Source of the DNA: Comamonadaceae bacterium 2PF
GTDB lineage: Bacteria; Pseudomonadota; Gammaproteobacteria; Burkholderiales; Burkholderiaceae_C
Direction of reading: 5' to 3'
Assembly (NCBI GenBank): GCA_005502875.1
Contig: SCMV01000036.1
Coordinates: 1-39,433, forward strand
DNA length: 39,433 bases
The notes beneath the pieces were generated by a model. It was given only the letters and a program-made list of their open reading frames with translations. It did no database searches and was not told the DNA's origin. Position 1 is the first letter of the stretch, and every line of letters begins with the position of its first letter. The translations under genes were made by a program, and so were the position numbers. Positions 7,080-26,743 of the stretch are shown one piece after another.

Positions 7080-7083
7080 GAGT

Positions 7084-7107: not shown

Positions 7108-7144
7108 TGTATCCGAGCCGCCAATCTGACGCCAGCACCCAACA

Positions 7145-7169
7145 AAAAGCCCCGCACTGCGGGGCTTTT
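7145..7169 (-). terminator. Intrinsic terminator of the chemoreceptor gene
   Basis: GCCCCGC and GCGGGGC pair around a 3-nt loop, flanked by A and T runs on both sides. On the minus strand it follows the chemoreceptor stop at 7192 and ends in a T-tract. The symmetry makes it potentially bidirectional. It separates the receptor gene from the ATPase operon promoter. Confidence 0.85.
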
Positions 7170-7191
7170 GCTTTGCAGCGCCGGACCTCGG

Positions 7192-8733: not shown

Positions 8734-8869
8734 GGCGGCAAACCTTTGAACGCTTCCCGGACGAAGAGGCCGAGGGCCTGCTCCGGGGTCAGGCACACGG
8801 GCAGGCGGGGCCTGCGTCACCTCGTGTCTTCGGCGTTTGCTCGTGGGACTGAAGCGGGCTTGTCCATGA

Positions 8870-8892
8870 AAAAGGCCCACCGAAGTGGGCCT
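8870..8892 (-). terminator. Intrinsic terminator of the PEP-CTERM gene ending at 8917
   Basis: AGGCCCAC and GTGGGCCT form an 8-bp stem with a 4-nt loop. On the minus strand the stem is followed by TTTTTC. It lies 25 bp past the stop codon. Confidence 0.85.
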
Positions 8893-8916
8893 GATGTGAA
8901 TGGGACAAGGTGCGCC

Positions 8917-9840: not shown

Positions 9841-10069
9841 GTGATCCCCCTTTGTGTTGAGTCTGCGTACTTTTTCATGAATCGCGCCGAGCTGCAATGG
9901 CCCGTGGAGGCGTCTCGCCAGAGAACGGGTCCCACGCACGGGCGGATGGGCGACTCTCCTGCACCGAATCGGGAATTCCTGTCTGGAGCGCCGATTTTTC
10001 CCGCGATCGATCCGGACCATGCCGGCCAGAATGGGTCCTCCAAACGGTCTGTCCTCCACGCCGATCACC

Positions 10070-11323: not shown

Positions 11324-11352
11324 GCCACCTGCCCAACCGCCCGCTCGTTCGT

Positions 11353-12342
11353 TCAAGGGCCTGCCGCCGCCATCCACGCCTTCAGCTCGTCGCCTGTTGG
11401 CAGGGCGCCGAGCACCCCTTGCCGAGACGCCACCCAGGCGCCAGCCGACGTGGCCAGGTGCAGCGCTGGTGAGGCATCCAGCCCCGCTGCCAGCGCCTGG
11501 CACCAGGCCGCTGCGAAGGCGTCGCCGCAGCCCGTGGTGTCCACCGCCTGCACGAGGCGTGCGGGGTGATGCCGCGGTGCGTCCACGTCGGCGCCGGCCG
11601 GCCAGAGCCAGCAACCCGCCTCACCCAGCGTGACCAGGAGCTGAACGCCGGTGTGCGCCTGGCGCCAGGCCCGCACCGACTCGAATTCGTCGGGGCTCGG
11701 GCCCTCTCCCGAGTCCCGAGCACTCGTTGGCCCGCTTGCATCCGCCTGCGCGCCCCAAAGCGCTCGTGCCTCGTGCTCATTGAGCAGCAGCGTGTCGACC
11801 TGCTGCAGCACCTCGCTGGCGATCGGGCGCCAGGGCGAGGGGTTGAGCACCGTCTTGGCGCCGGCTTGCCGTGCCAGCCGGAAGGCCTCGGCGATGACCT
11901 CGTCGGGCGCCTCGAACTGAGCGTAGGCCACGGCCGATGCCGCGATGTCACTGGCGGCTGCCCGCGCGTGCTCGCGCCCGAGCAGGTGGTTGGCGCCAGG
12001 GTGCACGGCGATGACGTTGTCGCCAGCCTGGTCGATCAGGCCGACGCCGTGGCCGCTGGGGCCGGCAAAGCGGTGCACGTGGGCGTCGCTCAGGCCTTCC
12101 TGGCGCAGCCGGCCAAGCAGGGCCTGGGCGGCCATGTCATCGCCCACGCCGAGCAGCAGGTGCACGGGCGCACCCAGGCGCCGCAGGCCCACCGCCACGT
12201 TCAGCCCCTTGCCGCCAGGCTCCATCAGGAAGCCGTCGGCGTGCACGTGCTCGCCGCGCGCGGGCAGGCGAGGCGTGAACCAGCAGCAGGCCATCACGAA
12301 GCTGCCGATGACGAAGACGGGCCGGGGCGAAGGGTCTGACAT
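11353..12342 (-). CDS. PfkB/ribokinase family carbohydrate kinase
   Basis: A 329-residue cytoplasmic sugar kinase. PfkB signature 1 is visible as EPGGKGLNVAVGLRRLG (about residues 41-57), and signature 2 as DTTGCGDAF, with Cys in place of the usual Ala of DTTGAGD and the catalytic Asp kept. The overall layout is closest to ribokinase and fructokinase-like members. A short acidic insertion (QADASGPTSARDSGEGPSPDE) lies between the lid and the nucleotide-binding part. The sugar cannot be told from sequence. It is 37 bp downstream of a PEP-CTERM gene on the same strand, and a GntR/HutC regulator is divergent upstream, so regulator, exported protein and kinase may form one carbohydrate-responsive locus (inference). 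Confidence 0.9.
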   Translation of the reverse strand: MSDPSPRPVFVIGSFVMACCWFTPRLPARGEHVHADGFLMEPGGKGLNVAVGLRRLGAPVHLLLGVGDDMAAQALLGRLRQEGLSDAHVHRFAGPSGHGVGLIDQAGDNVIAVHPGANHLLGREHARAAASDIAASAVAYAQFEAPDEVIAEAFRLARQAGAKTVLNPSPWRPIASEVLQQVDTLLLNEHEARALWGAQADASGPTSARDSGEGPSPDEFESVRAWRQAHTGVQLLVTLGEAGCWLWPAGADVDAPRHHPARLVQAVDTTGCGDAFAAAWCQALAAGLDASPALHLATSAGAWVASRQGVLGALPTGDELKAWMAAAGP

Positions 12343-12379
12343 GTCGGGGCGCAGAACAGGTGCCCCAGTCTAGGTGGCT

Positions 12380-13294
12380 TCAGTCCAGGTGCGGCAGCCG
12401 CCCACGCCAGGCGGCCAGCGCGTAGAGCATGCCCATCACGAACAGGATGGCGGTGGTCGGCTCGGGCACCACGCTGACGGCGTAGTCGTGGCCACTCACG
12501 CTCACGGTGTTGGCGCCTGCCACGTTCGGCGTCAGGTTGAAGCGGGCGGTGCTCATGTAGTCGGCCCAGGCGTCGCTGGTGCCGTTGCGAACGCCCGCTT
12601 GCGATCCGGCGAACAGCGTGCCGCGCACGCGCACCAGCTCACCCACCACGGCTTCGAAGGTCTGGCTGAACACGCCGTCGCCCTGCGACATCTGCCAGTC
12701 GATCGTGCGCACGCGCGGAACCGGTGACAGCCACGCCGGCCCCATGGACGCCGCAAAGCCCACGCTCAGTGCCCCGGGGGCGGCAGGCAGCGGGGTCACA
12801 CCGCTGGTGCCGTCGATGGTCAGCGAGAAGGTGTAGGTGATGGGTGTGCCTGCGGCCAGCCCGGGCGCGGTGACCTCGATGAAGTCCTCGAAGGAGGTCG
12901 AGAAGATGGCGTCCACGAAGCCGCTGTCGGCGTCGAAGGCCTTTTCATAGTGGGTGCTCAGTTTCCCCTTGAGCACGCCCATGGAAGCCTCGATCTGGGC
13001 GTGGGCGCGCGCGCCGTTGCTCAGCAAGGTGTCCGAGCTTTGCCTGAGCACGGGTTGGCTGACCAGGTTGGCGCCTTCGATGCTGGTTTGCTTCGAATCG
13101 ACCGGGGCCTCGACCGGGTTGGTGGCGTGGCGGATCCCGTCGGTGTAGGTGCTCGCGTTCAGGTAGGCCGGGTTGGGCAGGAAGGGCGCGGCCAGGCTCA
13201 GGCCCGGGGCGGCGAGTGCCGCAGCCAGGATCAGGCCCAGGGCCGGGCGCAACGGTGCGACGGGGCTGGTTTGGGTGGTGGGGCAGACGGCCAT
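12380..13294 (-). CDS. PEP-CTERM sorting domain protein (second of five)
   Basis: An exported protein of 304 residues from the start chosen, with a hydrophobic signal segment ALGLILAAALAAPGLSLAAP. The extracellular part is rich in Ser, Thr, Ala and Gly and belongs to no family I recognise. It ends in VVPEPTTAILFVMGMLYALAAW followed by RGRLPHLD, a PEP-CTERM signal with a rather weak basic tail. An ATG at 13321 gives 9 more residues but has no ribosome-binding site; the ATG at 13294 has GGGAGG 3 nt upstream, so I prefer it, though the spacing is short. It is followed after 37 bp by the PfkB kinase on the same strand and is divergent from the GntR regulator. Confidence 0.85.
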   Translation of the reverse strand: MAVCPTTQTSPVAPLRPALGLILAAALAAPGLSLAAPFLPNPAYLNASTYTDGIRHATNPVEAPVDSKQTSIEGANLVSQPVLRQSSDTLLSNGARAHAQIEASMGVLKGKLSTHYEKAFDADSGFVDAIFSTSFEDFIEVTAPGLAAGTPITYTFSLTIDGTSGVTPLPAAPGALSVGFAASMGPAWLSPVPRVRTIDWQMSQGDGVFSQTFEAVVGELVRVRGTLFAGSQAGVRNGTSDAWADYMSTARFNLTPNVAGANTVSVSGHDYAVSVVPEPTTAILFVMGMLYALAAWRGRLPHLD

Positions 13295-13414
13295 GGGCCT
13301 CCCTGATTGGTTTGATTTCATGATGCCATTATGGAGTCCAAAAAGATACCAAACTATCGAACATGTCGATGCAAGGGGCCACCCCTAGAATCGATGCATG
13401 CCTTGTGATCTGCC

Positions 13415-14191
13415 ATGAGCCCTGTTTTGCCCCCCTCGGTGCCGCCTGGCGGCTGGTCTGGCCTGGTGCAGCTGGATGCTGGTCGTGCGCAGCCGGTTTA
13501 CCTGCAGCTGGTCGATGCGCTCACGCAGCTGATGAGCACGGGGGTGCTCGCCGAAGGCCAGCACCTGCCGGCCGAGCGCGTGCTGGCGGCAGAGTTGGGC
13601 GTCAGCCGGACCACGGTCAAGCGCGCCTACGACCACCTGCGCGAGGCGCAGAACCTGAGCACGCACGGGCGGGGCGGCACGGTGGTGCGCCACACGCCCA
13701 GGGTGGCGCCGGAGCTGGCGCGCCTGAAGGGCTTTTCCAGGGAGATGGAGGAGCTGGGCATGGTGCCGAGCACGCAGGTGCTGTCGCGCCGCATCGTGCT
13801 CGATCGCACCATGGCTTCGGTGTTCAAGCGCCCCTCGACCGCGCAGTTCCTGCAGATCACGCGGGTGCGCCTGGCCGATGGCTGCCCGATGTCACGCGAG
13901 GTGGCCTGGTACGACCTGACGGCCGCGCCGGAGCTGGCCGATTGGGACGGGCAGGGCTCGGCTTATGGCCTGCTCAAGGCCGCCAGCGGCATCGAGCTCG
14001 AGCGCGCCGACCAGAGCGTGGAGGCGGTGATGAGCGACGCCGAAGAGACCCGCGTCTTCGGCTTCGAGCGACCAGGGCCCTGCTTGCTGCTCAAGCGGCA
14101 CACCTACGCCAGCACGGGGCAGTTGGTGGAGTACGTGGAAGGCACCTTCCGGGGCGATGCCTACGCTTACCGGCACGCGATGAAGCCCTGA
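13415..14191 (+). CDS. GntR family transcriptional regulator, HutC/UTRA subfamily
   Basis: A 258-residue DNA-binding regulator. The N-terminal winged helix-turn-helix contains QPVYLQLVDALTQLM and LPAERVLAAELGVSRTTVKRAYDHL, the GntR signature. From about residue 95 the UTRA ligand domain follows (FSREMEELGMVPSTQVLS ... YVEGTFRGDAYAYRH), which in relatives binds small effectors such as sugar phosphates, histidine derivatives or phosphonates. It is divergent from the PEP-CTERM/PfkB pair across about 120 bp and is likely to control that pair and itself. The short plus-strand leader contains CCTAGAAT at about 13393-13400, whose TAGAAT could be its -10 box. No Shine-Dalgarno sequence precedes the ATG. 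Confidence 0.92.
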   Translation: MSPVLPPSVPPGGWSGLVQLDAGRAQPVYLQLVDALTQLMSTGVLAEGQHLPAERVLAAELGVSRTTVKRAYDHLREAQNLSTHGRGGTVVRHTPRVAPELARLKGFSREMEELGMVPSTQVLSRRIVLDRTMASVFKRPSTAQFLQITRVRLADGCPMSREVAWYDLTAAPELADWDGQGSAYGLLKAASGIELERADQSVEAVMSDAEETRVFGFERPGPCLLLKRHTYASTGQLVEYVEGTFRGDAYAYRHAMKP

Positions 14192-14254
14192 GCCCGGTGA
14201 GCCCAGGCCCCAGCGAGGCAGGCGCACCGCGCGGTGCGCCGCTCGCCAGCCGGG

Positions 14255-14341
14255 TCACTGGCTCGAAAGGCTCAGGCCCGCGTGCTCGCGCAGCGGGTGG
14301 AAGTGCACCAGCGGGTGGCGCTCGGTGGTCAGGCGCAGGTC
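14255..14341 (-). pseudogene. Remnant of the 3' end of prfC
   Basis: Read on the minus strand this encodes DLRLTTERHPLVHFHPLREH followed by AGLSLSSQ and a stop, almost identical to the last 28 residues of the intact release factor 3 at 21194-22819 (two changes, Ala to Thr and Thr to Ser). Upstream of this stretch the resemblance stops abruptly. The fragment cannot make a working protein. It marks the far boundary of a 6.9-kb block, as expected when an element enters the 3' end of a gene and brings a replacement end with it. Confidence 0.85.
14268..14341 (+). repeat. Left copy of a 74-bp direct repeat (prfC 3' end), possible attachment site
   Basis: It matches 21207-21280 in the same orientation over 74 bp with 5 mismatches (about 93% identity by my count). 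It begins AGGCTCAG and ends CGCAGGTC. Both copies lie at the prfC C-terminal coding end. The two copies enclose the LuxR/PEP-CTERM/lipoprotein block. Confidence 0.85.
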
Positions 14342-14370
14342 ATGGGGAAGGGCGCCGTCCAAGCCGGCTG

Positions 14371-14392
14371 CATCATCTGTTTGAATGATGAC
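14371..14392. promoter_or_regulatory. Operator-like dyad, copy 1 (upstream of PEP-CTERM gene)
   Basis: CATCAT and ATGATG arms surround a centre CTGTTTGA. The same 22-bp site with only 3 centre changes occurs at 16772-16793, next to the luxR-type gene. It lies 262 bp before the PEP-CTERM start at 14654. It is likely a binding site for the LuxR-type regulator encoded in between (inference). Confidence 0.65.
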
Positions 14393-14653
14393 AAAAACCA
14401 TGTGCCCTCCCAGTATGTGTTTCAAATGAAGGCGGCCCATCCGCTGGATGTCTTGCTGCTCGCCAATGGGATGCCTGTGGGCGTTTGGTCGCGCTTTGTT
14501 GTGGGGTTGGAAATGGCCCTTGTCTTCGTATTTGCAGGCATGGTTCTCAAGGGCTTTTTTGAAATCTGGCGGCCGCCTGGCGCGGGTGGTGAGCCCAAGA
14601 CGAGCCAATCAGCTTCACACTTTTGGTACCCAGGTTGGCACCCAGGAGGCGAA

Positions 14654-15670
14654 ATGAACAAGCGTTGTCAAGATCAGCCTGAGGCGGCGAGCCAGTCGGG
14701 CAAGCTTCTCGGAGCACTGGCCGTGCTGACTTTGTGCCTTTTCGGCATGCCTGCCTTGGCCGAGACATACGCCTATGCGGCGGTGAAGGACGCCGGGGTC
14801 AGCGCGCAGAACCTGGCGCTAGGCAACCACGAGTTCGGCGATGAGTCCCTGGCCTTGAATGGAGAGCTGGCCAGTGCGCAGGGGCGTGGCAACATCGCCC
14901 AGGCGCAAACCCTGTTCGGGGTCAACAGGGTGTCGGTGTCCAACTCGATATGGGTCAGTGACGAGTACCTTCGCGAGACAGGGTGGGGCGGTCCGTTGGC
15001 CGTTGGGATGTCCATTTGGACGGACGAGTTCACGATCACGGGCGGGACCGGTGTCGGCCGTGCCAAGGTATCCGTGAATGTGACGGGCTGGTTTGGCGGT
15101 GGTGTTGGTGCCCAGGGGGGGTACGGATTGTGGACGGCAACACCATCCGATCTGCAGCGTGAACGCGATGAGTTGCTTCGCGCCGATCCGCTGACTTGGT
15201 TGGGAGGTGTGCTGGACGATCCTGAAGACGTGGGCGTCGCGAAGGTGCTGTCCTACCAGGCATGGGTTCCTGCCCCTGGTTATTCGGAGCCCGGCTTTCT
15301 GATTGCGCAGCCCAACAGCCTGTTTGGCGGCACCTTTGTCGCCACCATTGAATTTGTCTATGGCCAACCATTTTGGATGGCCAGCGGCCTCTATGGTTTC
15401 GCCAATGACACAGGTTCTTTGTCGGCCATGAACTCGGCCCACTTTGGTATCACTGTGCAAGGTGATGCGGGGGCACAGATTCTGTCCTCGTCCGGAACGA
15501 GTTACGCTGCGGCCGTCCCCGAACCTGCAAACTGGGTCCTCTTGGTGGTGGGATTGGCAGTGCTCCTGTGGATGTCCACGGGCGAGGCTCAGCGGATGGG
15601 GGGCAAGGCCAGCACCCGCAGGATCAGTTCACGTTGGCTGGTGACGCCCGTCTTCGCAAAGATGCTCTGA
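14654..15670 (+). CDS. PEP-CTERM sorting domain protein (third of five)
   Basis: An exported protein of 338 residues. The signal peptide runs KLLGALAVLTLCLFGMPALA then ETYAYAAV. The extracellular region is beta-rich with many Gly, Ser and Asn and resembles no family I know. The sorting signal AAVPEPANWVLLVVGLAVLL sits about 45 residues before the stop and is followed by an unusually long basic tail (RMGGKASTRRISSRW...), where most family members end within about 10 residues. That tail is read from DNA that also encodes the end of the convergent LuxR-type gene, so the original stop may have been lost. Start chosen for AGGAGG at 14644-14649. The operator-like dyad at 14371 suggests control by the neighbouring regulator. 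Confidence 0.85.
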   Translation: MNKRCQDQPEAASQSGKLLGALAVLTLCLFGMPALAETYAYAAVKDAGVSAQNLALGNHEFGDESLALNGELASAQGRGNIAQAQTLFGVNRVSVSNSIWVSDEYLRETGWGGPLAVGMSIWTDEFTITGGTGVGRAKVSVNVTGWFGGGVGAQGGYGLWTATPSDLQRERDELLRADPLTWLGGVLDDPEDVGVAKVLSYQAWVPAPGYSEPGFLIAQPNSLFGGTFVATIEFVYGQPFWMASGLYGFANDTGSLSAMNSAHFGITVQGDAGAQILSSSGTSYAAAVPEPANWVLLVVGLAVLLWMSTGEAQRMGGKASTRRISSRWLVTPVFAKML

Positions 15671-16743
15671 AGCTGGGTTCGGGCTGTGCTGGGCCGCACG
15701 CCCTCGGCCCGAACATGGTCTTCTACGCTGTCACCCTGGGCAATGGCGCGGGCCAGCCTGGCCTCCGCGGGCGTCAAGGTGAACAGTTCCATGAGTTGCC
15801 TGGCTGAGGCGACTCTGCGCGAGAGGCTCGATTCGGTGATCAGGCACAACACCAGTTGCCGGTACTCCGAGGCCGTCCACATGGTGGTGGTCGGTGCGGG
15901 CATCATCGTGACGTAGCAAGTGCCCCAAGGGCTTTCACCGCCGAGCCGGGCGTGTGTGGTTCCACCGCTGGACACAGTGTGCTGCAAACTCTTCATCAGT
16001 TGCGCGGTGTCGTGAGGCTCTTGACCCGCCAGCTTGCCTTCGCACATTCGAAGCGGTGAAGGTCCTCGCAACAGTGATTCGCCTCGAGGATTCGAGGCCA
16101 GAATCTGCCCACTCTCAGACAAGGTCAGGATGCCCAGGTGTGTGGAGTTGGCTGCCCATTGGCTGGCAGCCACCGCAGGGGCACTTTGGCAGCGCTCCTG
16201 CTCCAGCCGCTTGTTGATCTGGCAGGCTCGTCTCAGGTGGGGCAGAAGCCGACGGTAGAAATCCAGTTCTGGCTCGGTGTAGCAGCCGACATGGCCCGAT
16301 CGAAGCGCGCTCAACTTCACAGCCACGGGCCCGTGTCGCACGATGATGCCGCCGATGCAGTGCTTGAGTTGCTGTGGCCGCAACCAGTCGCCATAGAACT
16401 CGGTCGAATCCAGTTTGGCTTCGGGGTACAGCATTTCTGAGGTCACCGCCACACCTTCCGCCAGCGTTTCTTCGTTGCGAACCCAGACGTTGGTGCTCGC
16501 GTAATGCTCAATGTAGTTGGCGACATAGGTTGGCTCGAAGCCCACCGTTCGAATGACAACCCCCGGCGGGCCATCGGCCACCCCGCTGGTGCTGAAATCG
16601 TGCATCAGCAGCGTGATGGCGGCGGCATTGAGGCTTTGCGATACCTGTTCCATCACGGCAATCCACCGTTCCGGATCGATGGCAGCCTCGTAGATCAGGC
16701 CAATGATCTCGTGCAGGCGATCCTCGCCAAGAAGCTGGGTCAT
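15589..16743 (-). CDS. LuxR-type helix-turn-helix transcriptional regulator
   Basis: A 384-residue DNA-binding protein. The C-terminal 65 residues (FTLTPAEARLARAIAQGDSV ... PSTARTQLQSIFAKTGVTSQ ... LILRVLAL) form a LuxR-type HTH. The N-terminal 300 residues are a sensory region of unknown ligand that begins LHEIIGLIYEAAIDPERWIAVM, a start seen in other stand-alone LuxR-type regulators of proteobacteria. There is no receiver aspartate pattern and no P-loop, so it is neither a two-component response regulator nor a MalT type. A CATCAT/ATGATG dyad 28 bp upstream of the start is repeated before the PEP-CTERM gene at 14654. The two genes converge and overlap by 82 bp (15589-15670), so the regulator and its likely target are transcribed against each other. 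Confidence 0.9.
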   Translation of the reverse strand: MTQLLGEDRLHEIIGLIYEAAIDPERWIAVMEQVSQSLNAAAITLLMHDFSTSGVADGPPGVVIRTVGFEPTYVANYIEHYASTNVWVRNEETLAEGVAVTSEMLYPEAKLDSTEFYGDWLRPQQLKHCIGGIIVRHGPVAVKLSALRSGHVGCYTEPELDFYRRLLPHLRRACQINKRLEQERCQSAPAVAASQWAANSTHLGILTLSESGQILASNPRGESLLRGPSPLRMCEGKLAGQEPHDTAQLMKSLQHTVSSGGTTHARLGGESPWGTCYVTMMPAPTTTMWTASEYRQLVLCLITESSLSRRVASARQLMELFTLTPAEARLARAIAQGDSVEDHVRAEGVRPSTARTQLQSIFAKTGVTSQRELILRVLALPPIR

Positions 16744-16771
16744 CTGCGTACCTTCCCCGTGCGCAAATTGT

Positions 16772-16793
16772 CATCATGTGTTTAGATGATGAC
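16772..16793. promoter_or_regulatory. Operator-like dyad, copy 2 (upstream of luxR-type gene)
   Basis: CATCAT and ATGATG arms surround GTGTTTAG, and the symmetry extends outward to GTCATCAT/ATGATGAC. It matches 14371-14392 at 19 of 22 positions. It lies in the short region between the regulator start (16743, minus) and the start at 16848 (plus), so it could control both. Autoregulation of the LuxR-type gene is the simplest reading. Confidence 0.65.
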
Positions 16794-16847
16794 GGAAATG
16801 TGTGCCCTTGTCAGCATGGGCAATATACGAAACAGCGTTAAAGCAAT

Positions 16848-17288
16848 ATGCGATCCAGCAAGCCATGGCGCGTACGGCCATTTCGTTGCCTCTGGCTGGC
16901 CATTGCCTTATTCCAGATCGCAAGTGAAATCATCGGCGGAGACTTCGGTCGGCGGGTCAGGCAGACCCGGGACGAAGCCTATCGCGGCTACAATCAGCGC
17001 ATCGCCAGCATGTGGGGCACCGTACTGGCTTCGTCCGCCATGTACGGATCTGCACTGCAAACCGGTGGGAGCGCCGCACCGCTGTCGGCTGCCAATGCAT
17101 CGATGAACCGATTCAACGCCGAGACGCAAGCACAGGGCGAAGCCTTCATCAGCCAGTTGGCGCCTTCGCTGAAGACGCTTGGCGAGGCCAGCCTGCAGGT
17201 TCTCGGCGATTCCGTTCTGATCCCGATCGCTGACCAAGCGGCGATGCGACAGACCTTGAGTCGGCTCTACAAGAAACATCGTCAGTAA
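16848..17288 (+). pseudogene. C-terminal fragment of a lipoprotein paralogue, possibly still expressed
   Basis: A 146-residue frame. From residue 27 (EIIGGDFGRRVRQTRDEAY) to the end (LSRLYKKHRQ) it is homologous to the last 122 residues of the lipoprotein at 19663-21141 (EILGGDFGRQFRRTRDQAY ... LIKLYKKYRR). The preceding 370 residues of that paralogue are missing. The short start (RPFRCLWLAIALFQIA) is hydrophobic and could act as a weak export signal by chance. There is no clear ribosome-binding site. I read it as the leftover of a duplicated gene, but an active short secreted protein is not excluded. The next frame starts 3 nt after its stop. Confidence 0.6.
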
Positions 17289-17291
17289 GCA

Positions 17292-19550
17292 ATGCCTGTG
17301 AGGGCGGCAAGCGTCAGGGGTTTCATGTTGTTCTTAACCGTGTTTTCAGTTGTGAGGGCCTTGCCAACAGTGCTGAGCTGCGCAGCAAGGATATTCATTG
17401 GCAAAGGCAGGCAGCTGAGGCGAGTGGATGAAGCCGCAGTTTTGTATGCGAGGCGCGATCATATTCAAGCTGCGCCTCGATCGCGACATCGCTTCGAGTC
17501 AGGCTGGGACTTGACTGATTCATGGCCAAAACCAGCAGCCTGGTCAACCCTCATGCTTGCCATGGTGACGTTCGCGCCCCATTCGTCGGCGGCGCAAGAT
17601 CCGTTCTCAAGGGAGTTCTATTCCAAGTATCCGGCAGCCAACGAGATCATCAAGCGAGAGCCCGGTAAAGGCCAACCACCCACGCAGGCCGAGCTGGCCA
17701 ATCTCGACGCATTCCTGGATCGCATGAGGGGCGCGCGTGATCGGCTTCAAAGCCAGTGTATTGGCAACCAATCCAGCCGTATGGTCAGGACATTCGGGGG
17801 GCAAACGATTCTTGTGTTGCCGGATTTGTACGCAAAGTGCGAAAACGACGCCAAGACATTGGCATTGGGAGGCTCGGTGCATGACCAGACCGTGATACCT
17901 GGCCTGATGCGGGCATTTAATTCCTATTGGAATGCCGATTATTCACCTCCAAGGGCCGATTCGGCCGACCTGCAAGCATGGCGGGACAAGGCCAAGAGCA
18001 TGACGCGCTTCGATCCACCAGTGTGCAGTGGCGTGGCTGGCATGATCATAGACGCCCTCGCAGAGGGGGCAAGAACGAAGGCCGGAGAGATTTTTGACAA
18101 GTACTTGCCGCTTTGCGGAAGTGGCAGTGCTTGGGCAAAAATGTTCGAGCCCAGTCTGTCCAAGCCCAGCCCGGCGGCGTCATCAACGGATCGGCTTTCG
18201 CGGGATTTTTACGTGCTTTACCCCAGGACCACGGGTGAATGGGTTGCGGTACCCGGCAAGGGGGCGCCCCCGCCGGTGTCCGGCATGAAGGCCTTCGAAG
18301 ACCACTTGGCCAATATGCGTGCCATACGCGAACGGTTTCGACAGGATTGCATCGGATCGGGGGCGGCGCAGATGGTCAAACAGGTCCGGGGGGTGACTGT
18401 GCTCGCATGGCCCGAACGATTCGAAAATTGCGAGGGTGATGCTCGAAAACTGTTTGAACCGTTGGGCCTATTCGATTCGAATATGGCGACGGTATGGAAT
18501 CCTTATTGGGGTGCCAACTATTCACCGCCGCGCGGAGATCCAGCGGATGCGGAACGCTGGAGACGCTGGCAAAACGGGTTTGTGAGATTTTCAAAAGAAT
18601 GCGAAATCGCCTCCTGGCGAATCATTCACAGCGGCGAGCCAGGCTTCCCCGATTCAGCAGAGCAGGTTTTCAGGCGCATGGAAAAACGATGCCCAGCTCG
18701 TTGGATAGCCTTGTTCGAGCCGGATGATCTCATCAGGAAGCGGGAGTTGGACGCGAAGAAGCGCTGCAAGCCAGGAACAAGCTACATCGTTGTCGATGAA
18801 AAATCCGGCAATGGCTCTAGGGAAGAGTGCGACGAGTCTGACAAATTCATACCACCTGACTCCGCGAAAGATGGGCGCTCCCAGAAGAAGGATCCGCTTG
18901 CGGACGAATTGGCAGCCATCCAGCGTGGGGAGTTTGAGCGCCCGGCCGCCGCCGGGGGGGACGCATCATCCGCTCAGGCGATGCTGAACGCCCGCAGGCG
19001 GGCAGGCGCTGACCTGACTGCTGCCATGGAGGATGGCGTGCGACAACAACCGAAGGCCGGCTCCATTGGCGGAACGCAGATTTTCGGTGGTGAGAACGGG
19101 CAGCTACTGGAGGCTGTCGCAGCGCAGGCTGACTTGTCCAACACGGTAGGTGAGGAGGCGAACATCGGCACCACGAATGGCTGCGATGACGCGGCGGAAC
19201 GTCGGGGCACCGAAAACATGCAGACCAGTCGCGTGGGGGTGATCCGCTCCCTGCCTCCAGCACAGCAAGAGTGTGCAACGGCCAAGCTGTACGTTGACAT
19301 TTATGCGCGGGCTCTGGCTTACGCGCAGCGTTGCAACAGACGCGCGGAGATGCCGTCCATTCAAGGTGCCTTACAGCAAAGCCGCGGAGACGCGAGCAGG
19401 ATCTGCGGCAGTGTGACCCCATCCAGGCCTGCGCAGACTGCAGCGCCATACCAGACACCCAGACGCGCCCCGCCGCCATCCAGGTCACCGACCCCACCAG
19501 CCAGCCCCTCAAGGGGGACAGGCTGTGACAGATGCTTGCCAGATAGATGA
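17292..19550 (+). CDS. Secreted cysteine-rich protein with two tandem repeats, unknown function
   Basis: A frame of 752 residues that I cannot place in a family. The likely export signal is AAWSTLMLAMVTFAPHSSAA (about 83-101), so the true start may be the TTG at 17511 (AGGCTGGGA upstream) rather than the ATG at 17292. Two homologous units of about 175 residues follow: 104-287, starting FSREFYSKYP, and 302-478, starting LSRDFYVLYP. Each has four cysteines at matching places (156, 183, 245, 275 and 353, 380, 437, 467; spacings 27 and 30 kept in both) and a shared W.A.YSPPR motif. A Lys/Asp-rich middle, a region with five more cysteines and a Pro/Ser/Thr-rich tail complete it. The paired cysteines suggest disulfides in the periplasm or outside the cell. 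GC is lower than in the flanking genes, and it lies between two copies of a lipoprotein domain, which suggests a shared system. Confidence 0.7.
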   Translation: MPVRAASVRGFMLFLTVFSVVRALPTVLSCAARIFIGKGRQLRRVDEAAVLYARRDHIQAAPRSRHRFESGWDLTDSWPKPAAWSTLMLAMVTFAPHSSAAQDPFSREFYSKYPAANEIIKREPGKGQPPTQAELANLDAFLDRMRGARDRLQSQCIGNQSSRMVRTFGGQTILVLPDLYAKCENDAKTLALGGSVHDQTVIPGLMRAFNSYWNADYSPPRADSADLQAWRDKAKSMTRFDPPVCSGVAGMIIDALAEGARTKAGEIFDKYLPLCGSGSAWAKMFEPSLSKPSPAASSTDRLSRDFYVLYPRTTGEWVAVPGKGAPPPVSGMKAFEDHLANMRAIRERFRQDCIGSGAAQMVKQVRGVTVLAWPERFENCEGDARKLFEPLGLFDSNMATVWNPYWGANYSPPRGDPADAERWRRWQNGFVRFSKECEIASWRIIHSGEPGFPDSAEQVFRRMEKRCPARWIALFEPDDLIRKRELDAKKRCKPGTSYIVVDEKSGNGSREECDESDKFIPPDSAKDGRSQKKDPLADELAAIQRGEFERPAAAGGDASSAQAMLNARRRAGADLTAAMEDGVRQQPKAGSIGGTQIFGGENGQLLEAVAAQADLSNTVGEEANIGTTNGCDDAAERRGTENMQTSRVGVIRSLPPAQQECATAKLYVDIYARALAYAQRCNRRAEMPSIQGALQQSRGDASRICGSVTPSRPAQTAAPYQTPRRAPPPSRSPTPPASPSRGTGCDRCLPDR

Positions 19551-19662
19551 GGCCTCTTGCTGGATACCCGCCAGTCCCGAACCGGTCGAGTCTTGAAAAC
19601 AGCGAGGTTGCTGACTTGCCTGACCACGCCCACCTTCGTCCTGAAGCCTAAAAGGATTCCGC

Positions 19663-21141
19663 ATGCAGCCCTTTACTTTGCCATTCATCCTGAGCCTGGC
19701 GACTTTGCTTTCAGCATGTGGAACCACAGGCGACTATTACGCGAGGAGCAAGGCTGAGCACGACGCCCTAGTAGAAGCCGTCGACGAATCCGCCGCGAAG
19801 GCGGCAGTGCAGCGCGCTCACAGCCGGATCGTGGCGATACGGTGGCCTGCGCTCATCGCACCCAATGCCCGGCAGGCAATCGTGTCCAATGGCAACCAAT
19901 GGATTGCCGTGTCGATGCTGCCATCGCTGGCGTCAGACACCCCACCGCTTGCGGCCTTGCCGGACTTGATCGAGGCCTCATCAACCAATTTCGCTGCAGA
20001 GATGTATTGGTCGATCAAGCGCCTAGACCCCTCGGTGCAGGTGCTACTTGAGCCGCAACTTGTGGAGATGGATCGCTTTGGAGCGGCATCATTGAAGCCG
20101 CTGACGGAGGTTTCTATCCCGGCTGACGTGGTCGCGGACCTCTGGGTCACCACGCCTCCCTGGCAGGTGCTGGTGGCGCAAGAGTTTCAACTGACCTTGC
20201 AATCTGCCCCTGTTCGGTCGCCGGGCAATTGCGGCCTTCTGCTGGCCACGATTGGGCACGAACCCTTGCAGTCCGCAATCGAGAAGGTGCCTTGCTCTGC
20301 GGGCCTGGACGCACGAAATGCCATGCAGGCGCACTTCCTCCTCGATGGCGAACCCCGCCCCAGACCCATGACGGCTTTGCCCAACAAGGCGACCCCCCCG
20401 TTAAGCCGAGATGCTGTCGTGCTCATGAAGACGGTCAACTATGGGGATGGCGGGCCCTTTTCAGCCAGCATGAACGACTACGTCAAGGACAGCCGACCCA
20501 AAGGCCTCGCAGACGCGGATCGCTCCCCCACCCACCCCATCGTGAGCGGCTTTGCACGCTTAACTGTAAGCGGGCTGAGCACGATTGAGCCCGTTGAGGC
20601 TCGGCCGGAAACCTTATCGAGCTATTTGAGTCAGTTCGATCCCTCACTGGCGGATACCCTGCGCGGCGGCAAGGCGCTCACCCCCGCGCAGTCTGAGAAC
20701 CTGCAGCTCGTGAGGCGTCTGTTGGCGCAGGAACTCCAGGTGCGCGGGGCGCGGGACGAACGGATCGCGCGTGAGATCCTTGGCGGCGACTTCGGGCGTC
20801 AATTTCGGCGCACACGAGACCAAGCGTACAGCCAATATGGCAAACAGATGATGAAGATGTGGGGCGGGGTGGCGGGTGCACTGGCCATCCACTCGGCCAC
20901 CCTGAACGCGACGGGGCCTGGGCTGGGCGCTCTACAGGCCTCGAATCAGGCCACGGACTACTTCAATCAGCAGCAGGAAGCGGCTGGCCTGGCCTACGTT
21001 CGCAGCATTGCGCCATCCATTGCATCGATGGGCAATGCAAATGTGTCCTTGCTGGATCAACGGCTGGCGATTGACATCGGCGATCAACGGGGCTTGCGGA
21101 ACGCCCTGATCAAGCTCTACAAGAAATACCGCCGCCCCTGA
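19663..21141 (+). CDS. Predicted lipoprotein of unknown function
   Basis: A 492-residue protein with a lipoprotein signal peptide, PFTLPFILSLATLLSACGTT: lipobox LSAC with the lipidated Cys at about residue 19. AAAGGA lies just upstream of the ATG. The family is not recognised. Residues 20-370 are mixed alpha/beta with a few cysteines; the last 122 residues (EILGGDFGRQFRRTRDQAY ... LYKKYRR) form a separable, mostly helical domain found again as a fragment at 16848-17288. It follows the tandem-repeat secreted protein by 112 bp on the same strand, so the two may act together at the envelope. It sits inside the prfC-repeat-bounded block and converges with prfC. Confidence 0.8.
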   Translation: MQPFTLPFILSLATLLSACGTTGDYYARSKAEHDALVEAVDESAAKAAVQRAHSRIVAIRWPALIAPNARQAIVSNGNQWIAVSMLPSLASDTPPLAALPDLIEASSTNFAAEMYWSIKRLDPSVQVLLEPQLVEMDRFGAASLKPLTEVSIPADVVADLWVTTPPWQVLVAQEFQLTLQSAPVRSPGNCGLLLATIGHEPLQSAIEKVPCSAGLDARNAMQAHFLLDGEPRPRPMTALPNKATPPLSRDAVVLMKTVNYGDGGPFSASMNDYVKDSRPKGLADADRSPTHPIVSGFARLTVSGLSTIEPVEARPETLSSYLSQFDPSLADTLRGGKALTPAQSENLQLVRRLLAQELQVRGARDERIAREILGGDFGRQFRRTRDQAYSQYGKQMMKMWGGVAGALAIHSATLNATGPGLGALQASNQATDYFNQQQEAAGLAYVRSIAPSIASMGNANVSLLDQRLAIDIGDQRGLRNALIKLYKKYRRP

Positions 21142-21193
21142 TGTTTGGTTGTTGGCAGTCTCGAGTTTGGGCGCACGGTGACATCGCTGCCTG

Positions 21194-22819
21194 TTATTGT
21201 GTAGACAGGCTCAGCCCTGCGTGCTCGCGCAACGGGTGGAAGTGCACCAGCGGGTGGCGCTCGGCCGTCAGGCGCAGGTCGTAGGCCGAGGTCATCATGT
21301 AGGCCAGCGTGTCGGCGGCATCGAGCGCCAGCTTGGATGCGTTCTCGTCGGTGAATTTTTTCAGCGCCTCGGGCGTGTCGGCCGTGATCCAGCGCGCGCC
21401 CGTGAAGCGACAGGGCATCAGGCGGATGTCGACGCTGTACTCGGCTTTCAGGCGGTGCTGCACGACTTCGAACTGCAGCTGGCCGACGGCGCCCAGCAGC
21501 ATCGAGCCGCCGACTTCGGGTCTGAAAACCTGGATGGCGCCTTCTTCGCCCAATTGCAGCAAACCTGCCTGCAACTGCTTTGATTTCATCGGGTTGGCCA
21601 GTTCCACCGTCTGGAACAGCTCGGGCGCGAAGAACGGCAGGCCGGTGTACTGCAGGGTGACGCCGTCGGTGATGGTGTCGCCGAGCTGCACGCCGCCGTG
21701 CGTGGTGAAGCCGATGATGTCGCCGGCGAAGGCCTCGTCAACGGCCTCGCGGCGCTGCGACAGGAAGGTCACCACCGAGGTCGGGCGCAGCTCCTTGCCG
21801 TTGCGCTGCACCTTGAGCTTCATGCCCGGCGTGTACTTGCCAGAGCACACGCGCACGAAGGCGATGCGGTCGCGGTGCGACGGGTCCATGTTGGCCTGCA
21901 CCTTGAAGACCACGCCGGAGAAGTTCTCCATCTCGGGCAGGATCTTTTTCTTGCTGCCGTCCTTTTCGGTGCTGAAGCGGGGCCGGGGCGAGGGCGCCAG
22001 GTCCACCAGGGCGTCGAGCACCTCCTGCACACCGAAGTTGTTGACGGCCGAGCCGAAGAACACCGGCGTCTGCTTGGCGGCCAGGAACAGCTCCAGGTCG
22101 AACGCGGGCGCGGCCTCGGCCATCAATTCCATGTTCTGCTCGGCCAGCTCCCATTCGTGGCCGAAGCGCTCGGCCAGCTTGTCGCGCTCGTCCAGCGACA
22201 CCACTTCGTCGTCTTCGCCGCGCTTGTCGGCGCCGGCGTCGAACAGGCGCATCGACTTCGAGCGCAGGTTGACGATGCCGCCGAACAGCTTGCCCTGGCC
22301 CACCGGCCAGGTCATCGGCACGCAGGGCATGCCCAGCTCCTGCTCGACCTCGTCGAGCAGCTCGAGCGGGTCGCGCCCCTCGCGGTCCATCTTGTTGACG
22401 AAGGTGATGATGGGCGTGTCGCGCTGGCGGCAGACCTCGATCAGGCGCTTGGTCTGCGCTTCCACGCCGTTGGCCGCGTCGATCACCATCAGCGCCGAGT
22501 CGACCGCGGTCAGCACGCGGTAGGTGTCTTCCGAGAAGTCCTTGTGGCCCGGGGTGTCGAGCAGGTTCACCACGTGCTCGCGGTAGAGCATCTGCATCAC
22601 GCTGGATGCCACCGAGATGCCGCGCTGCTTTTCGATCTCCATCCAGTCGGAGGTGGCGTGGCGCGAGGCCTTGCGGCCCTTGACGGCTCCGGCGATGTGG
22701 ATGGCACCCGAGAACAGCAGCAGCTTTTCCGTCAGCGTCGTTTTACCGGCGTCCGGGTGGGAAATGATCGCGAAGGTGCGGCGGCGCCCGGTTTCGGGGG
22801 CAAAAGGCGAGGTGGACAC
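21194..22819 (-). CDS. prfC: Peptide chain release factor 3
   Basis: A translational GTPase that removes release factors 1 and 2 from the ribosome after termination. The 541-residue length is normal for the family. G1 SHPDAGKTT, switch region QRGISVASSV, G3 DTPGHKDFSEDTYR and G4 NKMDR are intact, and the C-terminal part ends HPLVHFHPLREHAGLSLSTQ. The ATG at 22819 gives the expected N-terminus. The last 74 coding bases or so are repeated at 14268-14341. prfC is known as an integration target of SXT/R391-type elements, although those use its 5' end; here the 3' end is the part duplicated. The gene itself is complete and should work. Confidence 0.97.
   Translation of the reverse strand: MSTSPFAPETGRRRTFAIISHPDAGKTTLTEKLLLFSGAIHIAGAVKGRKASRHATSDWMEIEKQRGISVASSVMQMLYREHVVNLLDTPGHKDFSEDTYRVLTAVDSALMVIDAANGVEAQTKRLIEVCRQRDTPIITFVNKMDREGRDPLELLDEVEQELGMPCVPMTWPVGQGKLFGGIVNLRSKSMRLFDAGADKRGEDDEVVSLDERDKLAERFGHEWELAEQNMELMAEAAPAFDLELFLAAKQTPVFFGSAVNNFGVQEVLDALVDLAPSPRPRFSTEKDGSKKKILPEMENFSGVVFKVQANMDPSHRDRIAFVRVCSGKYTPGMKLKVQRNGKELRPTSVVTFLSQRREAVDEAFAGDIIGFTTHGGVQLGDTITDGVTLQYTGLPFFAPELFQTVELANPMKSKQLQAGLLQLGEEGAIQVFRPEVGGSMLLGAVGQLQFEVVQHRLKAEYSVDIRLMPCRFTGARWITADTPEALKKFTDENASKLALDAADTLAYMMTSAYDLRLTAERHPLVHFHPLREHAGLSLSTQ
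21207..21280 (+). repeat. Right copy of the 74-bp direct repeat, inside the prfC 3' end
   Basis: Same orientation as 14268-14341, with 69 of 74 positions identical by my count. It encodes the last residues of release factor 3 on the minus strand. Together the two copies enclose about 6.9 kb. Confidence 0.85.
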
Positions 22820-22998
22820 GGCAAAGGCTCCGGGCCGAGGAAAACCCGCGATGCTAGCCGATGAGGGGCCCGCGCGCCAGTTGGCGAGGGCCCCTGCTTG
22901 CCAAGAGGCGAGGCGCTGGCGGGGGCAGACGTCACCCCGGCGGTGCCTGAGTCAGCCAACCCTGGGGTCGCCAGGGCCGTCGATGGTGCTGGATGCGT

Positions 22999-23727
22999 TC
23001 ACGCCGCGCGGCGGCGGCGGGCCAGGAAGCCGATGGCGGCCAGGCCTGCCAGGGCGGCGGCGGCACTGGTGGGCTCGGGCACAGGCAGGGCCGTGCCGGA
23101 CACGCTGACCATGTCGAAGCGCCAGGTGCCCGAACCCGCAAAGGTCTTGCTGGCGTCGGAGGCCAGGTAGCCCGAGGTGCCAGGCGCGAACGTGGCCACC
23201 ACGCGGAAGGCCAGGTTGGCGTTGTCATCGGCGCCGGCCACGTTGGACAGGTCGATGGTGCGGGCGTTGAACCAGGTGTCGCCCAGGCCGCTGTCGAACA
23301 CGGCGTAGTCGATGAAGTTCACACCGTCCAGCGAGTACTGGGCCAGCTCGTAGCGCGAGCTGGTGTTGCTGTGGCGCAGGTCGTAGCTGAAGACCACGTC
23401 TTCGAAGCCGACCGAGCTGGCCTTGACTTCGATGCCACGGCTGTTGTTGCCGGCGCCTTGGCTGCCGTAGGTCGTGGTCTGCAGGCCGGAGTTGTCGCTG
23501 GCGGCCGGGTCGGACGAGCCGACGCCACTGTTGAAGCTGGGGGTGGTGACGCCACCGATCAGGCTCAGGCTGCCGGCGCCGACGGAGGGCAGGGCGCTGC
23601 CGGTGCCGGTGGCGCCATCGGGCGTGATGGAGTTGAACGACCATTGGGTGATGACCTCGGCGTGGGCGAGCTGGGCGGCACCCACGGTCAGGGCGAGGGT
23701 GATGGCGGACAGGGCGAAGGACTTCAT
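22999..23727 (-). CDS. PEP-CTERM sorting domain protein (fourth of five)
   Basis: An exported protein of 242 residues. The signal peptide KSFALSAITLALTVGAAQLAHA ends at AHA-E. The extracellular part is beta-rich (VITQWSFNSITPD..., SRGIEVKASSVGFEDVVFSY, TWRFDMVSVSG) and may be a jelly-roll type domain, but no family is certain. The end is a textbook signal: LPVPEPTSAAAALAGLAAIGF then LARRRRAA. An upstream motif at 23764-23791 is shared at the same internal spacing with the fifth PEP-CTERM gene. It is divergent from a GGDEF diguanylate cyclase, which mirrors the first PEP-CTERM gene beside an HD-GYP gene. Confidence 0.9.
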   Translation of the reverse strand: MKSFALSAITLALTVGAAQLAHAEVITQWSFNSITPDGATGTGSALPSVGAGSLSLIGGVTTPSFNSGVGSSDPAASDNSGLQTTTYGSQGAGNNSRGIEVKASSVGFEDVVFSYDLRHSNTSSRYELAQYSLDGVNFIDYAVFDSGLGDTWFNARTIDLSNVAGADDNANLAFRVVATFAPGTSGYLASDASKTFAGSGTWRFDMVSVSGTALPVPEPTSAAAALAGLAAIGFLARRRRAA

Positions 23728-23763
23728 GGAAACTCCAGTAAAGGCGTGCTGAAGCCCTTGAAT

Positions 23764-23791
23764 CTAGGGTTCTCCCGTGAACCGGCCGTGA
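23764..23791 (-). promoter_or_regulatory. Motif shared by two PEP-CTERM upstream regions, copy 1
   Basis: On the plus strand CTAGGGTTC is followed after 13 nt by CCGTGA (minus strand: TCACGG, 13 nt, GAACCCTAG). The same two parts with the same 13-nt gap occur at 30267-30294 before the fifth PEP-CTERM gene. Here it ends 37 bp from the start codon. It may be a promoter or activator site for a PEP-CTERM regulon. An extra TTCACGG lies inside this copy. Confidence 0.5.
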
Positions 23792-23861
23792 ATCGCCGGG
23801 CCGCTTTTTGCGCCGGGCGGCTCACGCCGGCTCAAGTTCGGTGTGCCAGGGTCGACATCTG

Positions 23862-24965
23862 ATGCAGCAAATCTTCAAAGAGAGCATGGGCGCGATGGAC
23901 CGCATGGAGCGCAAGCCGGGTGACCCGGGTCGCCTGGACTCGGGCACAGGCGTGTTCGCGCGCCTGATGCTGGTCGTCAGCGTCATCGCCGGGCTGGCCC
24001 ACCTGGGCTTCATCGGCCTGTTCCTGCGTGTGCAGGTGCCTGCGCTGGCCCTGGCCAACGTCGCCAGCGTGCTCGTCTACGTGCTGACGGCCATCCTGAT
24101 CCGGCGCGGTCGGCTCACGCTGGCCACCTTGTTGATCGTGCTGGAGGTGCTCCTGCACGGGGTGGTGGCCACGGCGATCATCGGCTGGGCCTCGGGCTTT
24201 CACCACTACCTGCTGCTGGTCATCCCTGTGGTGATTGTGAGCGCTTACTATCGGTATTCGCTGCGCTTTCTATTGGCTTGCTCCGTGGCTTTGCTGTACC
24301 TGGGCCTGGACCTGGGCTACCGCGAGGCCACGCCTGCGGTGGCCGTGCCCGAGCCCTTGATCGACGGCCTGCACTACATCAACCTGGCCACGGTGTTGCT
24401 CATGCTGGGGGTGTTGGCCACGGTCTACCAGCGCCTGGTTTCGCGTGCCGAGCAGGGCCTTCACGAGCTGGCCTGCACCGACCCCCTGACCCAGCTGCGC
24501 AACCGCCGCTTCATGATGGAGGTGGCCCAACACGAAGCCGCCGTCGTCGAGCGTGGAGGTCGGCCCCTGAGCGTCTTGCTGGGGGACATCGATCACTTCA
24601 AACGCATCAACGACCTGCATGGTCACGCGGTTGGCGACGGCGCGCTGCGTGCGATCGCCCAGGTGCTGCGCGACGGGGTGCGCGAGGTCGACCACGTGGC
24701 GCGCTGGGGTGGCGAAGAGTTCCTGGTGCTGCTGCCCGGCACCGAGCTGGACGAGGCGCAGCAGGTGGCTGACCGACTGCGCAGGGCGGTGCAGGCGCTG
24801 GTCGAGGTCGAGGGCCGCCGCCAAATCGGCCTGAGCATCACCCTGGGCCTGGCGGAGCTGCGCCCTGGCGAAAGCATCGAGCAGGCCCTCATGCGCGCCG
24901 ATCGAGCGCTCTATGAAGGCAAACAAGCCGGTCGAAACCGTGTGGTTCTCGCAGGACAAGCCTGA
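23862..24965 (+). CDS. Membrane-bound diguanylate cyclase (GGDEF)
   Basis: Predicted to make cyclic-di-GMP. The 367-residue protein has about six membrane helices in the first 190 residues (for example LMLVVSVIAGLAHLGFIGLF and LLLVIPVVIVSAYY), then a GGDEF domain starting at LACTDPLTQLRNRRFMMEV. The active-site motif is RWGGEEF. The inhibitory I-site RxxD is present as REVD five residues before it, so product inhibition is expected. The ATG at 23862 is chosen with AGGG upstream; ATGs about 27 and 36 nt further downstream are possible. The frame is open from 23808. The promoter of the ahcY operon begins within its last codons. It is divergent from the fourth PEP-CTERM gene. Confidence 0.93.
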   Translation: MQQIFKESMGAMDRMERKPGDPGRLDSGTGVFARLMLVVSVIAGLAHLGFIGLFLRVQVPALALANVASVLVYVLTAILIRRGRLTLATLLIVLEVLLHGVVATAIIGWASGFHHYLLLVIPVVIVSAYYRYSLRFLLACSVALLYLGLDLGYREATPAVAVPEPLIDGLHYINLATVLLMLGVLATVYQRLVSRAEQGLHELACTDPLTQLRNRRFMMEVAQHEAAVVERGGRPLSVLLGDIDHFKRINDLHGHAVGDGALRAIAQVLRDGVREVDHVARWGGEEFLVLLPGTELDEAQQVADRLRRAVQALVEVEGRRQIGLSITLGLAELRPGESIEQALMRADRALYEGKQAGRNRVVLAGQA

Positions 24966-24982
24966 TGCCTTGTGCCTATAAT
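24953..24982 (+). promoter_or_regulatory. Sigma-70 promoter of the ahcY operon
   Basis: A perfect -10 box TATAAT at 24977-24982 is preceded by AGGACA at 24953-24958 (4 of 6 to TTGACA, 18-nt spacer), which lies in the last codons of the GGDEF gene. Transcription should begin at about 24989-24991, exactly where the riboswitch P1 stem starts. Confidence 0.75.
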
Positions 24983-24989
24983 CGCGCCA

Positions 24990-25086
24990 CTTTCGAGGAG
25001 CGTTGCAAGGCCCCGTCCCGCCGTCCCACACGGCGCGACCCGCAGGCCCCAGGCTCGAAAGCCTCTCCTTTTGCAACGGCGCTCAC
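24990..25086 (+). promoter_or_regulatory. S-adenosylhomocysteine (SAH) riboswitch
   Basis: P1 pairs CTTTCGAG (24990-24997) with CTCGAAAG (25054-25061), 8 bp perfect. The conserved core CGAGGAGCG then TTGCAA follows. GAGCG (24998-25002) can pair with CGCTC (25080-25084) as the pseudoknot, and GTTGCAA with TTGCAAC (25071-25077). The pattern CGAGGAGCG...CAGGCTCG...ACGGCGCTCA is that of the SAH aptamer known in front of ahcY in betaproteobacteria. When SAH accumulates, the RNA is expected to raise expression of the SAH hydrolase operon downstream. Confidence 0.93.
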
Positions 25087-25109
25087 CCGCATGTGTCCCG
25101 CTGGGTGAG
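25082..25109 (+). promoter_or_regulatory. Candidate expression-platform hairpin of the SAH riboswitch
   Basis: CTCACCC (25082-25088) pairs with GGGTGAG (25103-25109), 7 bp. The first arm shares CTC with the 3' strand of the riboswitch pseudoknot, so hairpin and ligand-bound aptamer cannot form together. No U-tract follows, so it is not a standard intrinsic terminator, and it lies about 100 nt before the ahcY start. Confidence 0.6.
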
Positions 25110-25211
25110 TCATTCCCGCTTCACGTTCCCACGTCCCGTTTCGTCGGCGCTGAAGTTGTTCCCCCTCCCGGCAGCGCACGGCGGCTTTCAGAACTCTTTC
25201 GGAGCTGAGTC

Positions 25212-26660: not shown

Positions 26661-26665
26661 TCTCC

Positions 26666-26743
26666 CCCCTACCGCCTTCGGCGGCCCCCCTCTCCGGGGG
26701 GCAACCACCAGCGGCCCGGCCAAGCCGGTTCCGCGGTGGTTGC
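26666..26743. repeat. Cluster of three stable hairpins between ahcY and tlyA
   Basis: CCGCC-TTC-GGCGG (26672-26684), then CCCCCC-TCTCC-GGGGGG (26685-26701), then a long hairpin whose arms GCAACCACC (26701-26709) and GGTGGTTGC (26735-26743) extend inward through GCGG/CCGC. No T-tract follows. It resembles the CCCCC...GGGGGCAAC intergenic hairpin repeats I recall from Comamonadaceae-type genomes. It may protect or attenuate the operon messenger. Confidence 0.6.

What the first reader, a model, noticed from the sequence alone, without database searches (positions are those of the whole stretch)
14268..21280. 6.9-kb block bounded by direct repeats of the prfC 3' end
74 bp at 14268-14341 and 21207-21280 match at 69 positions in the same orientation. 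The right copy is the end of intact prfC and the left is a 28-codon remnant. This is what integration at the 3' end of a gene with a replacement end looks like. The block has lower GC (a sampled line at 18421-18480 is about 47% GC) and carries mostly unrecognised genes. prfC is a known integration site for SXT/R391 elements, but at its 5' end. No integrase is visible, so it may be a decayed or passive island. The 5 mismatches suggest the incoming end came from another lineage or that the event is old.
Basis: partly seen in the sequence, partly recalled or inferred. Interest (0 to 1): 0.8.

Follow-up and report, generated by a model that had tools for sequence, protein, structure and literature searches.

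The report
Passive foreign island at prfC end
A seven-kilobase block of foreign DNA has slipped into the very end of a translation-factor gene, bringing a replacement gene end and leaving the old end behind as a scrap; it is a clear but fairly ordinary example of how bacteria pick up gene blocks.

Summary
The last 29 codons of prfC (stop included) occur twice in direct orientation, 6.94 kb apart (14255-14341 and 21194-21280; 76 of 87 identical); no third copy was found in the 4.18-Mb draft genome. The closest relative by prfC, G007, has the empty site: one prfC with gntR 58 bp beyond it, colinear with both window flanks. The block is foreign: its genes have GC3 0.65-0.74 against 0.85-0.93 in flanking genes, and its two largest genes match none of 41 congeners. 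The left copy is the original prfC end. In intact prfC the foreign end starts inside the repeat: no private differences over the first 62 repeat bases, then 6 in the last 25. The block encodes a PEP-CTERM-like protein, a LuxR-type regulator with two dyad sites (exact form nowhere else in the genome), a likely lipoprotein, a likely secreted protein and a lipoprotein-gene fragment. No tyrosine integrase lies on the contig, and no resolvase in the genome. It resembles a CIME (att-like repeats, no recombinase), but site-specific integration is inferred. One-off short-homology capture in a gene-turnover hotspot is a serious rival. New member of a known kind; modest interest.

The parts
14255..14341 (-). 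Left repeat: displaced original 3' end of prfC (28 codons plus TGA)
   Evidence: 76/87 identical to the end of intact prfC; continuous with the native DNA that follows prfC in G007; differs at 1 of 77 repeat sites conserved in G007/G010/G025
21194..21280 (-). Right repeat: present 3' end of intact prfC; last about 25 bases foreign
   Evidence: differs at 0 of 55 conserved sites at repeat positions 0-61 and at 6 of 22 at positions 62-86
21194..22819 (-). prfC, peptide chain release factor 3, intact (541 aa)
14342..21193 (.). Inserted block between the repeats
   Evidence: absent from G007; low GC and GC3; p492 and p752 match none of 41 congeners
14371..14392 (.). Dyad CATCAT-N8-ATGATG, likely operator upstream of the PEP-CTERM gene
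   Evidence: role inferred
14654..15670 (+). Likely exported PEP-CTERM protein (338 aa)
   Evidence: PEP-CTERM family matches at the C-terminus, all below their curated cut-offs; no Pfam match; VPEP motif seen by eye
15589..16743 (-). LuxR/CsgD-type transcription regulator (384 aa)
   Evidence: homologues named DNA-binding CsgD family or helix-turn-helix regulator by their sources; no Pfam match of its own
16770..16793 (.). Dyad GTCATCAT-N8-ATGATGAC just upstream of luxR, likely autoregulatory operator
   Evidence: role inferred
16914..17288 (+). C-terminal fragment of a paralogue of the 492-aa lipoprotein
   Evidence: 40% identity to residues 367-491; first 366 residues missing
17553..19550 (+). 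p752: likely secreted protein with a twice-repeated domain (ORF opens at 17292; start near 17553 chosen by comparison with P0010)
   Evidence: signal peptide judged by eye
19663..21141 (+). p492: 492-aa likely lipoprotein (lipobox LLSAC by eye)
   Evidence: 6 proteins including itself found among about 5.8 billion
13415..14191 (+). gntR, native left neighbour
   Evidence: GntR and UTRA domains; 58 bp from prfC in G007, 63 bp from the scrap here

Best explanation
A horizontally acquired 6.85-kb block was inserted at the 3' end of prfC by a recombination whose crossover lay inside the last 87 bases of the gene. The incoming DNA carried a prfC-like end from another congener, so prfC stayed intact with a foreign last 25 or so bases, and the original end was displaced 6.9 kb away as a scrap still attached to its native flank. 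Shown by comparison: foreign block, empty site in a relative, native scrap, replacement end unlike the near relatives. Inferred: the arrangement is most simply read as attL/attR of a site-specific island that has no recombinase of its own (a CIME-like passive element). Its cargo looks like a self-regulated envelope-protein module: a LuxR-type regulator acting on two dyad operators, one before itself and one before the PEP-CTERM gene.
For: Repeat and its uniqueness. Empty site in G007, with 98.0% identity over 12.7 kb on the left and 95.0% over 5.5 kb on the right, the two alignments overlapping in G007 by 79 bases. Switch from native to foreign inside the repeat: at sites conserved in G007, G010 and G025, intact prfC has 0 of 55 differences at repeat positions 0-61 and 6 of 22 in the last 25 bases; 35 other congener sequences have medians of 3 and 3, 1 of 35 has none in the first part and 1 of 35 reaches 6 in the second. 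Each of the six states occurs in 1 to 15 other congener sequences. GC3 contrast. p492 and p752 match none of 41 congeners. Relatives of luxR, p752 and p492 (P0018, P0011, P0002) each have 5947 bp as longest contig, which suggests that they sit together elsewhere. Two dyads, the only exact matches in the genome.
Against: No integrase on the contig, no resolvase in the genome, no mobility gene recognised in the block, no DNA match of the block in plasmid or phage collections and no p492 match in plasmids. No comparable second prfC end in 38 + 3 congener loci. The scrap's 5' part is as native-like as the intact copy's (0 differences at conserved sites of positions 0-61), so the reciprocal mosaic expected of attL/attR is not demonstrated on that side. 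Only 11 sites separate the two copies. Ends of prfC may vary more than the rest of the gene.
Confidence: 0.5

Rival explanations
1. One-off capture without a site-specific recombinase: DNA from a congener in which the block is ordinary cargo downstream of prfC entered the cell; one join was a homologous crossover in the end of prfC, the other an illegitimate join 87 bases before the gene end (homology-facilitated illegitimate recombination), or a circle went in by a single short-homology crossover.
For: The prfC-HD interval is a gene-turnover region: of 38 congener loci, 13 have HD within 83 bp of prfC, 3 have the gntR module, 19 have 0.3-9.6 kb of other DNA and 3 have no HD in the stretch. 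Of 44 Pfam families matched by 45 ORFs from that cargo, the 25 shown are host-type with no integrase. The replacement end looks like an ordinary congeneric prfC end. The scrap is native-like over its whole length. A dominant breakpoint at the 3' end of vgrG with less precise far ends is reported for effector swapping in Pseudomonas aeruginosa (PMC11751169, passages read).
Against: The foreign tract in prfC appears to be only about 25 bases; a homologous crossover anywhere in a 1.6-kb gene would more often leave a longer one. The left join truncates no recognised gene.
Confidence: 0.35
2. Duplication of the prfC end made at insertion by a transposition-like event (old target-site duplication), diverged since.
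For: Direct repeats bound the block.
Against: Differences cluster at the 3' end of the intact copy and match alleles of other congeners, while the scrap keeps native states. 87 bases would be very long for a target-site duplication (recalled), and no transposase was recognised among the block's proteins.
Confidence: 0.07
3. Assembly artefact joining foreign sequence at a repeat.
For: Draft genome of 95 contigs.
Against: Both flanks are colinear with G007 on one contig, and the repeat is short and diverged. The protein p492 is recorded on 4 contigs, which may however be assemblies of the same sample.
Confidence: 0.04

Closest known systems
CIME (cis-mobilizable element)
   Same: Foreign block flanked by att-like direct repeats at a gene end, without integration genes (definition read in passages of PMC5704250)
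   Different: No related ICE or IME using this site was found; no integrase specificity is known for it
SXT/R391 ICEs in prfC
   Same: Target gene prfC
   Different: Those enter the 5' end of prfC and encode Int (PMC2791158, passages read); here it is the 3' end, with no int
Enterobacterial cdt1 phage beside prfC
   Same: Inserts next to prfC (one passage of PMC8138268; the passage does not say which end)
   Different: A phage with an IntSXT-group integrase; the block has neither phage genes nor integrase
SGI1-type islands at the 3' end of trmE
   Same: Insertion at the 3' end of a housekeeping gene (start of abstract of PMC8409611 seen)
   Different: Different gene; no integrase recognised here
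Homology-facilitated gene swapping next to vgrG
   Same: Breakpoint at the 3' end of the conserved gene, variable cargo beyond (PMC11751169, passages)
   Different: Here the old gene end was kept as a repeat

Membership tests
CIME | flanked by attL and attR-like direct repeats, at a site with one copy in a relative | tested here: met
CIME | lacks integration genes | tested here: met
   no PF00589 on the contig, no PF00239 in the genome
CIME | lacks transfer genes | tested here: met
   no transfer gene recognised among the block's five proteins (Pfam, NCBIfam)
CIME | derived from an ICE or IME; repeats are real substrates of a recombinase | not testable with these tools
   no related element or integrase was found
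SXT/R391 ICE | integration in the 5' end of prfC | tested here: not met
   repeat is the 3' end
SXT/R391 ICE | encodes Int, a tyrosine recombinase | tested here: not met
   no Phage_integrase match on this contig
Integrated phage or plasmid | phage or plasmid genes | tested here: not met
   7 proteins scanned (5 of the block, 2 homologues): PHROGs gave one weak match, in luxR (E 0.0028); no DNA match of the block in plasmids or phages; p492 none in plasmids
Defence island | known defence genes | tested here: not met
   PADLOC: no match for the same 7 proteins

The most novel reading that the evidence does not exclude
The 3' end of prfC acts as a true attachment site for small integrase-less islands in this group of bacteria that ride on an unknown recombinase supplied in trans, carrying a self-regulated envelope module from species to species and moving prfC end alleles with them.
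Probability: 0.15. Interest if true: 0.6.

Novelty: new member of a known kind. Interest (0 to 1): 0.35.

Why it matters
It gives a well-resolved insertion at the 3' end of a protein-coding gene, with empty site, displaced end and replacement end all visible, and marks prfC 3' as a place to look for passive islands. The cargo includes two very rare protein families, probably of the cell envelope, with no known fold or function.

Tried and rejected
Scans of genome contigs for relatives of p492 (A3) and p752 (A2) found none, nor did one viral-contig scan with A3. Structure predictions were poor (p492 mean pLDDT 41; p752 61), and the PDB fold search for p752 gave nothing at E 0.001 or better; p492 was not fold-searched. 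No solved relatives of either by sequence at E up to 1. No tRNA in the window, no Rfam match in 13000-23000; promoter and terminator scans at chance level. A first idea, that a long donor tract of prfC (last 500 bp) came with the block, was dropped: 5-6% divergence from G007 there is like the rest of that side, and private changes of intact prfC are concentrated in the last 25 bases (6 of 22 in all). The 24-base arm pair I3 turned out to be two sites that are each dyads, not transposon ends. Paper searches: prfC with integrase, attachment site and genomic island (20 of 22 listed); prfC with island and Burkholderia (no paper); prfC with integrates and integrative element (5 papers); gene fragment and attachment site; homology-facilitated recombination; CIME. 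No title or abstract start that I saw describes insertion at prfC 3'; this covers open-licence PMC papers only. I read passages of four papers, none whole.

Limits: prfC loci were first fetched from 37 of 41 congeners (38 loci, G041 twice). Weak matches not counted as second ends: two inverted 27-30 bp matches at E 6e-4 and 11-23 aa matches of 35-64% at E 0.002-0.04 in 11 loci. Family-wide, the 28-aa prfC end matched 155 of 299 genomes, so the other 144 say nothing; a second match was seen in G000 and in G149, the latter a 41-codon frame at a contig edge, not followed up. Only 25 of 44 Pfam families of the cargo scan were shown, so a single integrase hit there cannot be excluded. Some congener genomes are incomplete (53-100%).
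Full report
OBSERVATION. The 74-bp pair matches at 69 positions. The repeat really comprises the last 29 codons of prfC including the stop: 14255-14341 and 21194-21280, 76 of 87 identical. A search of the 4.18-Mb draft genome with 14200-14400 finds only the two copies. There is no tRNA in the window.

EMPTY SITE. In the nearest relative by prfC, G007 (protein 99%), prfC is followed after 58 bp by gntR (63 bp between scrap and gntR in the window), then by the same PEP-CTERM gene, pfkB and HD genes as in the window. Window 1601-14343 aligns to G007 at 98.0%, and window 21204-26685 at 95.0%; the two alignments overlap in G007 by 79 bases, that is, by the repeat. Removing one repeat and the block in a script gives a 541-codon prfC and 96.5-96.6% identity over 2.6 kb with G007 whichever copy is kept. 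G007 has no extra prfC fragment in the 16.9 kb downstream.

WHICH END IS FOREIGN. The left scrap runs straight into the native DNA that follows prfC in G007. At prfC sites where G007, G010 and G025 agree, the scrap differs at one repeat position only, 74. The intact prfC differs at none of 55 sites at repeat positions 0-61 and at 6 of 22 in the last 25 bases. The same counts for 35 other congener sequences have medians of 3 and 3; 1 of 35 has none in the first part, and 1 of 35 reaches 6 in the second. Intact prfC also has 4 differences in the hundred bases from 125 to 225 before the gene end, where the median of the others is 8. A binomial estimate for 6 in 25 at the rate of the rest of prfC is 1.5e-7, though gene ends may simply vary more. 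Each of the six states occurs in prfC of 1 to 15 other congener sequences. So the intact gene is native up to within the repeat and then has a congener-like end. Positions 14 and 48 split the other way (intact copy as G007; scrap as G010 and G025), which would fit a reciprocal crossover in the 13 bases between positions 48 and 62; but at position 15 the intact copy agrees with G010 and G025 and the scrap with nobody, and two polymorphic sites are weak evidence.

THE BLOCK. GC is 60.0% against 66.6% for the rest of the window; GC3 of its genes is 0.65-0.74 against 0.85-0.93 for eight flanking genes. p492 and p752 match none of 41 congeners at E 0.001, and p492 none of the other 398 genomes of a 399-genome family sample (which includes some congeners). 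LuxR-type relatives occur in 10 of 41 congeners but at 34% identity at best, and only one other genome of a 399-genome family sample reaches E 1e-50 (32% identity). The PEP-CTERM protein matches 11 of 41 congeners, at best 54%. Among about 5.8 billion proteins p492 has 5 relatives besides itself and p752 has 4 (only the candidates sharing most words were scored). The LuxR-type protein is 88% identical to one of an Aquabacterium MAG (P0014) and 95% to a metagenome protein (P0012). Relatives of luxR, p752 and p492 each have 5947 bp as longest contig, so they are probably together (inference; contig not seen). The genus of the window is probably Aquabacterium or near it; no call names it.

CARGO FUNCTION. 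The PEP-CTERM gene (14654-15670) and luxR (15589-16743) converge and overlap at their ends. Upstream of each lies a dyad CATCAT-N8-ATGATG (14371-14390 and 16772-16791); there is no other match with up to one mismatch in the window (shuffle expectation 0.06) and no other exact match of the slightly longer form in the genome. I infer an autoregulated switch for an exported protein. p752 looks secreted and p492 looks like a lipoprotein (signal features judged by eye). A C-terminal fragment of a p492 paralogue (16914-17288; 40% identity) suggests that the block has already lost sequence. Structure prediction gave no usable fold.

MECHANISM. No Phage_integrase match lies on this contig although 7 exist elsewhere in the genome, and the genome has no Resolvase match. 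The anatomy (gene end replaced, crossover inside the repeat, gene left intact) is that of attL/attR of a passive, CIME-like island; I give this 0.5. The interval between prfC and HD is variable in the genus, without a comparable repeat in 41 loci from 40 of 41 congeners and without an integrase among the Pfam families shown. So a single capture by short homology remains a serious rival, 0.35.

KNOWN KINDS. CIMEs are described as elements that lost integration and transfer genes but kept attL and attR (PMC5704250, passages). SXT/R391 elements use the 5' end of prfC and carry Int (PMC2791158, passages), so this is not one. The case is a new member of a known kind, filed by resemblance: descent from an ICE or IME could not be tested.

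Noticed in passing
window 9.8-14.2 kb and prfC-HD interval of 38 congener loci (L033-L070): The gntR-PEP-CTERM-pfkB module between prfC and HD occurs only in the window, G007, G010 and G025 among the loci read; the interval is a gene-turnover hotspot in the genus.
   Followed up: partly
window 8000-13750: Identity to G007 is 98-100% per 250-base bin here, against about 95% on the prfC side, suggesting a recent recombination tract between the two species.
   Followed up: no
window 14371-14392 and 16770-16793: A pair of dyad sites around a luxR/PEP-CTERM pair, with no other exact match in the genome: a candidate regulator-operator system.
   Followed up: partly
window 16914-17288: Truncated paralogue of the lipoprotein gene inside the block; its missing front part may have been replaced by the luxR/PEP-CTERM pair.
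   Followed up: partly
window 31000-33000: Tetranucleotide usage deviates as much as in the block, at high GC (72-73%).
   Followed up: no
L060, L126, L127 (G028): In G028 neither HD nor a second prfC end was found in 57 kb downstream of prfC; GGDEF, secretin and TPR genes lie there.
   Followed up: partly
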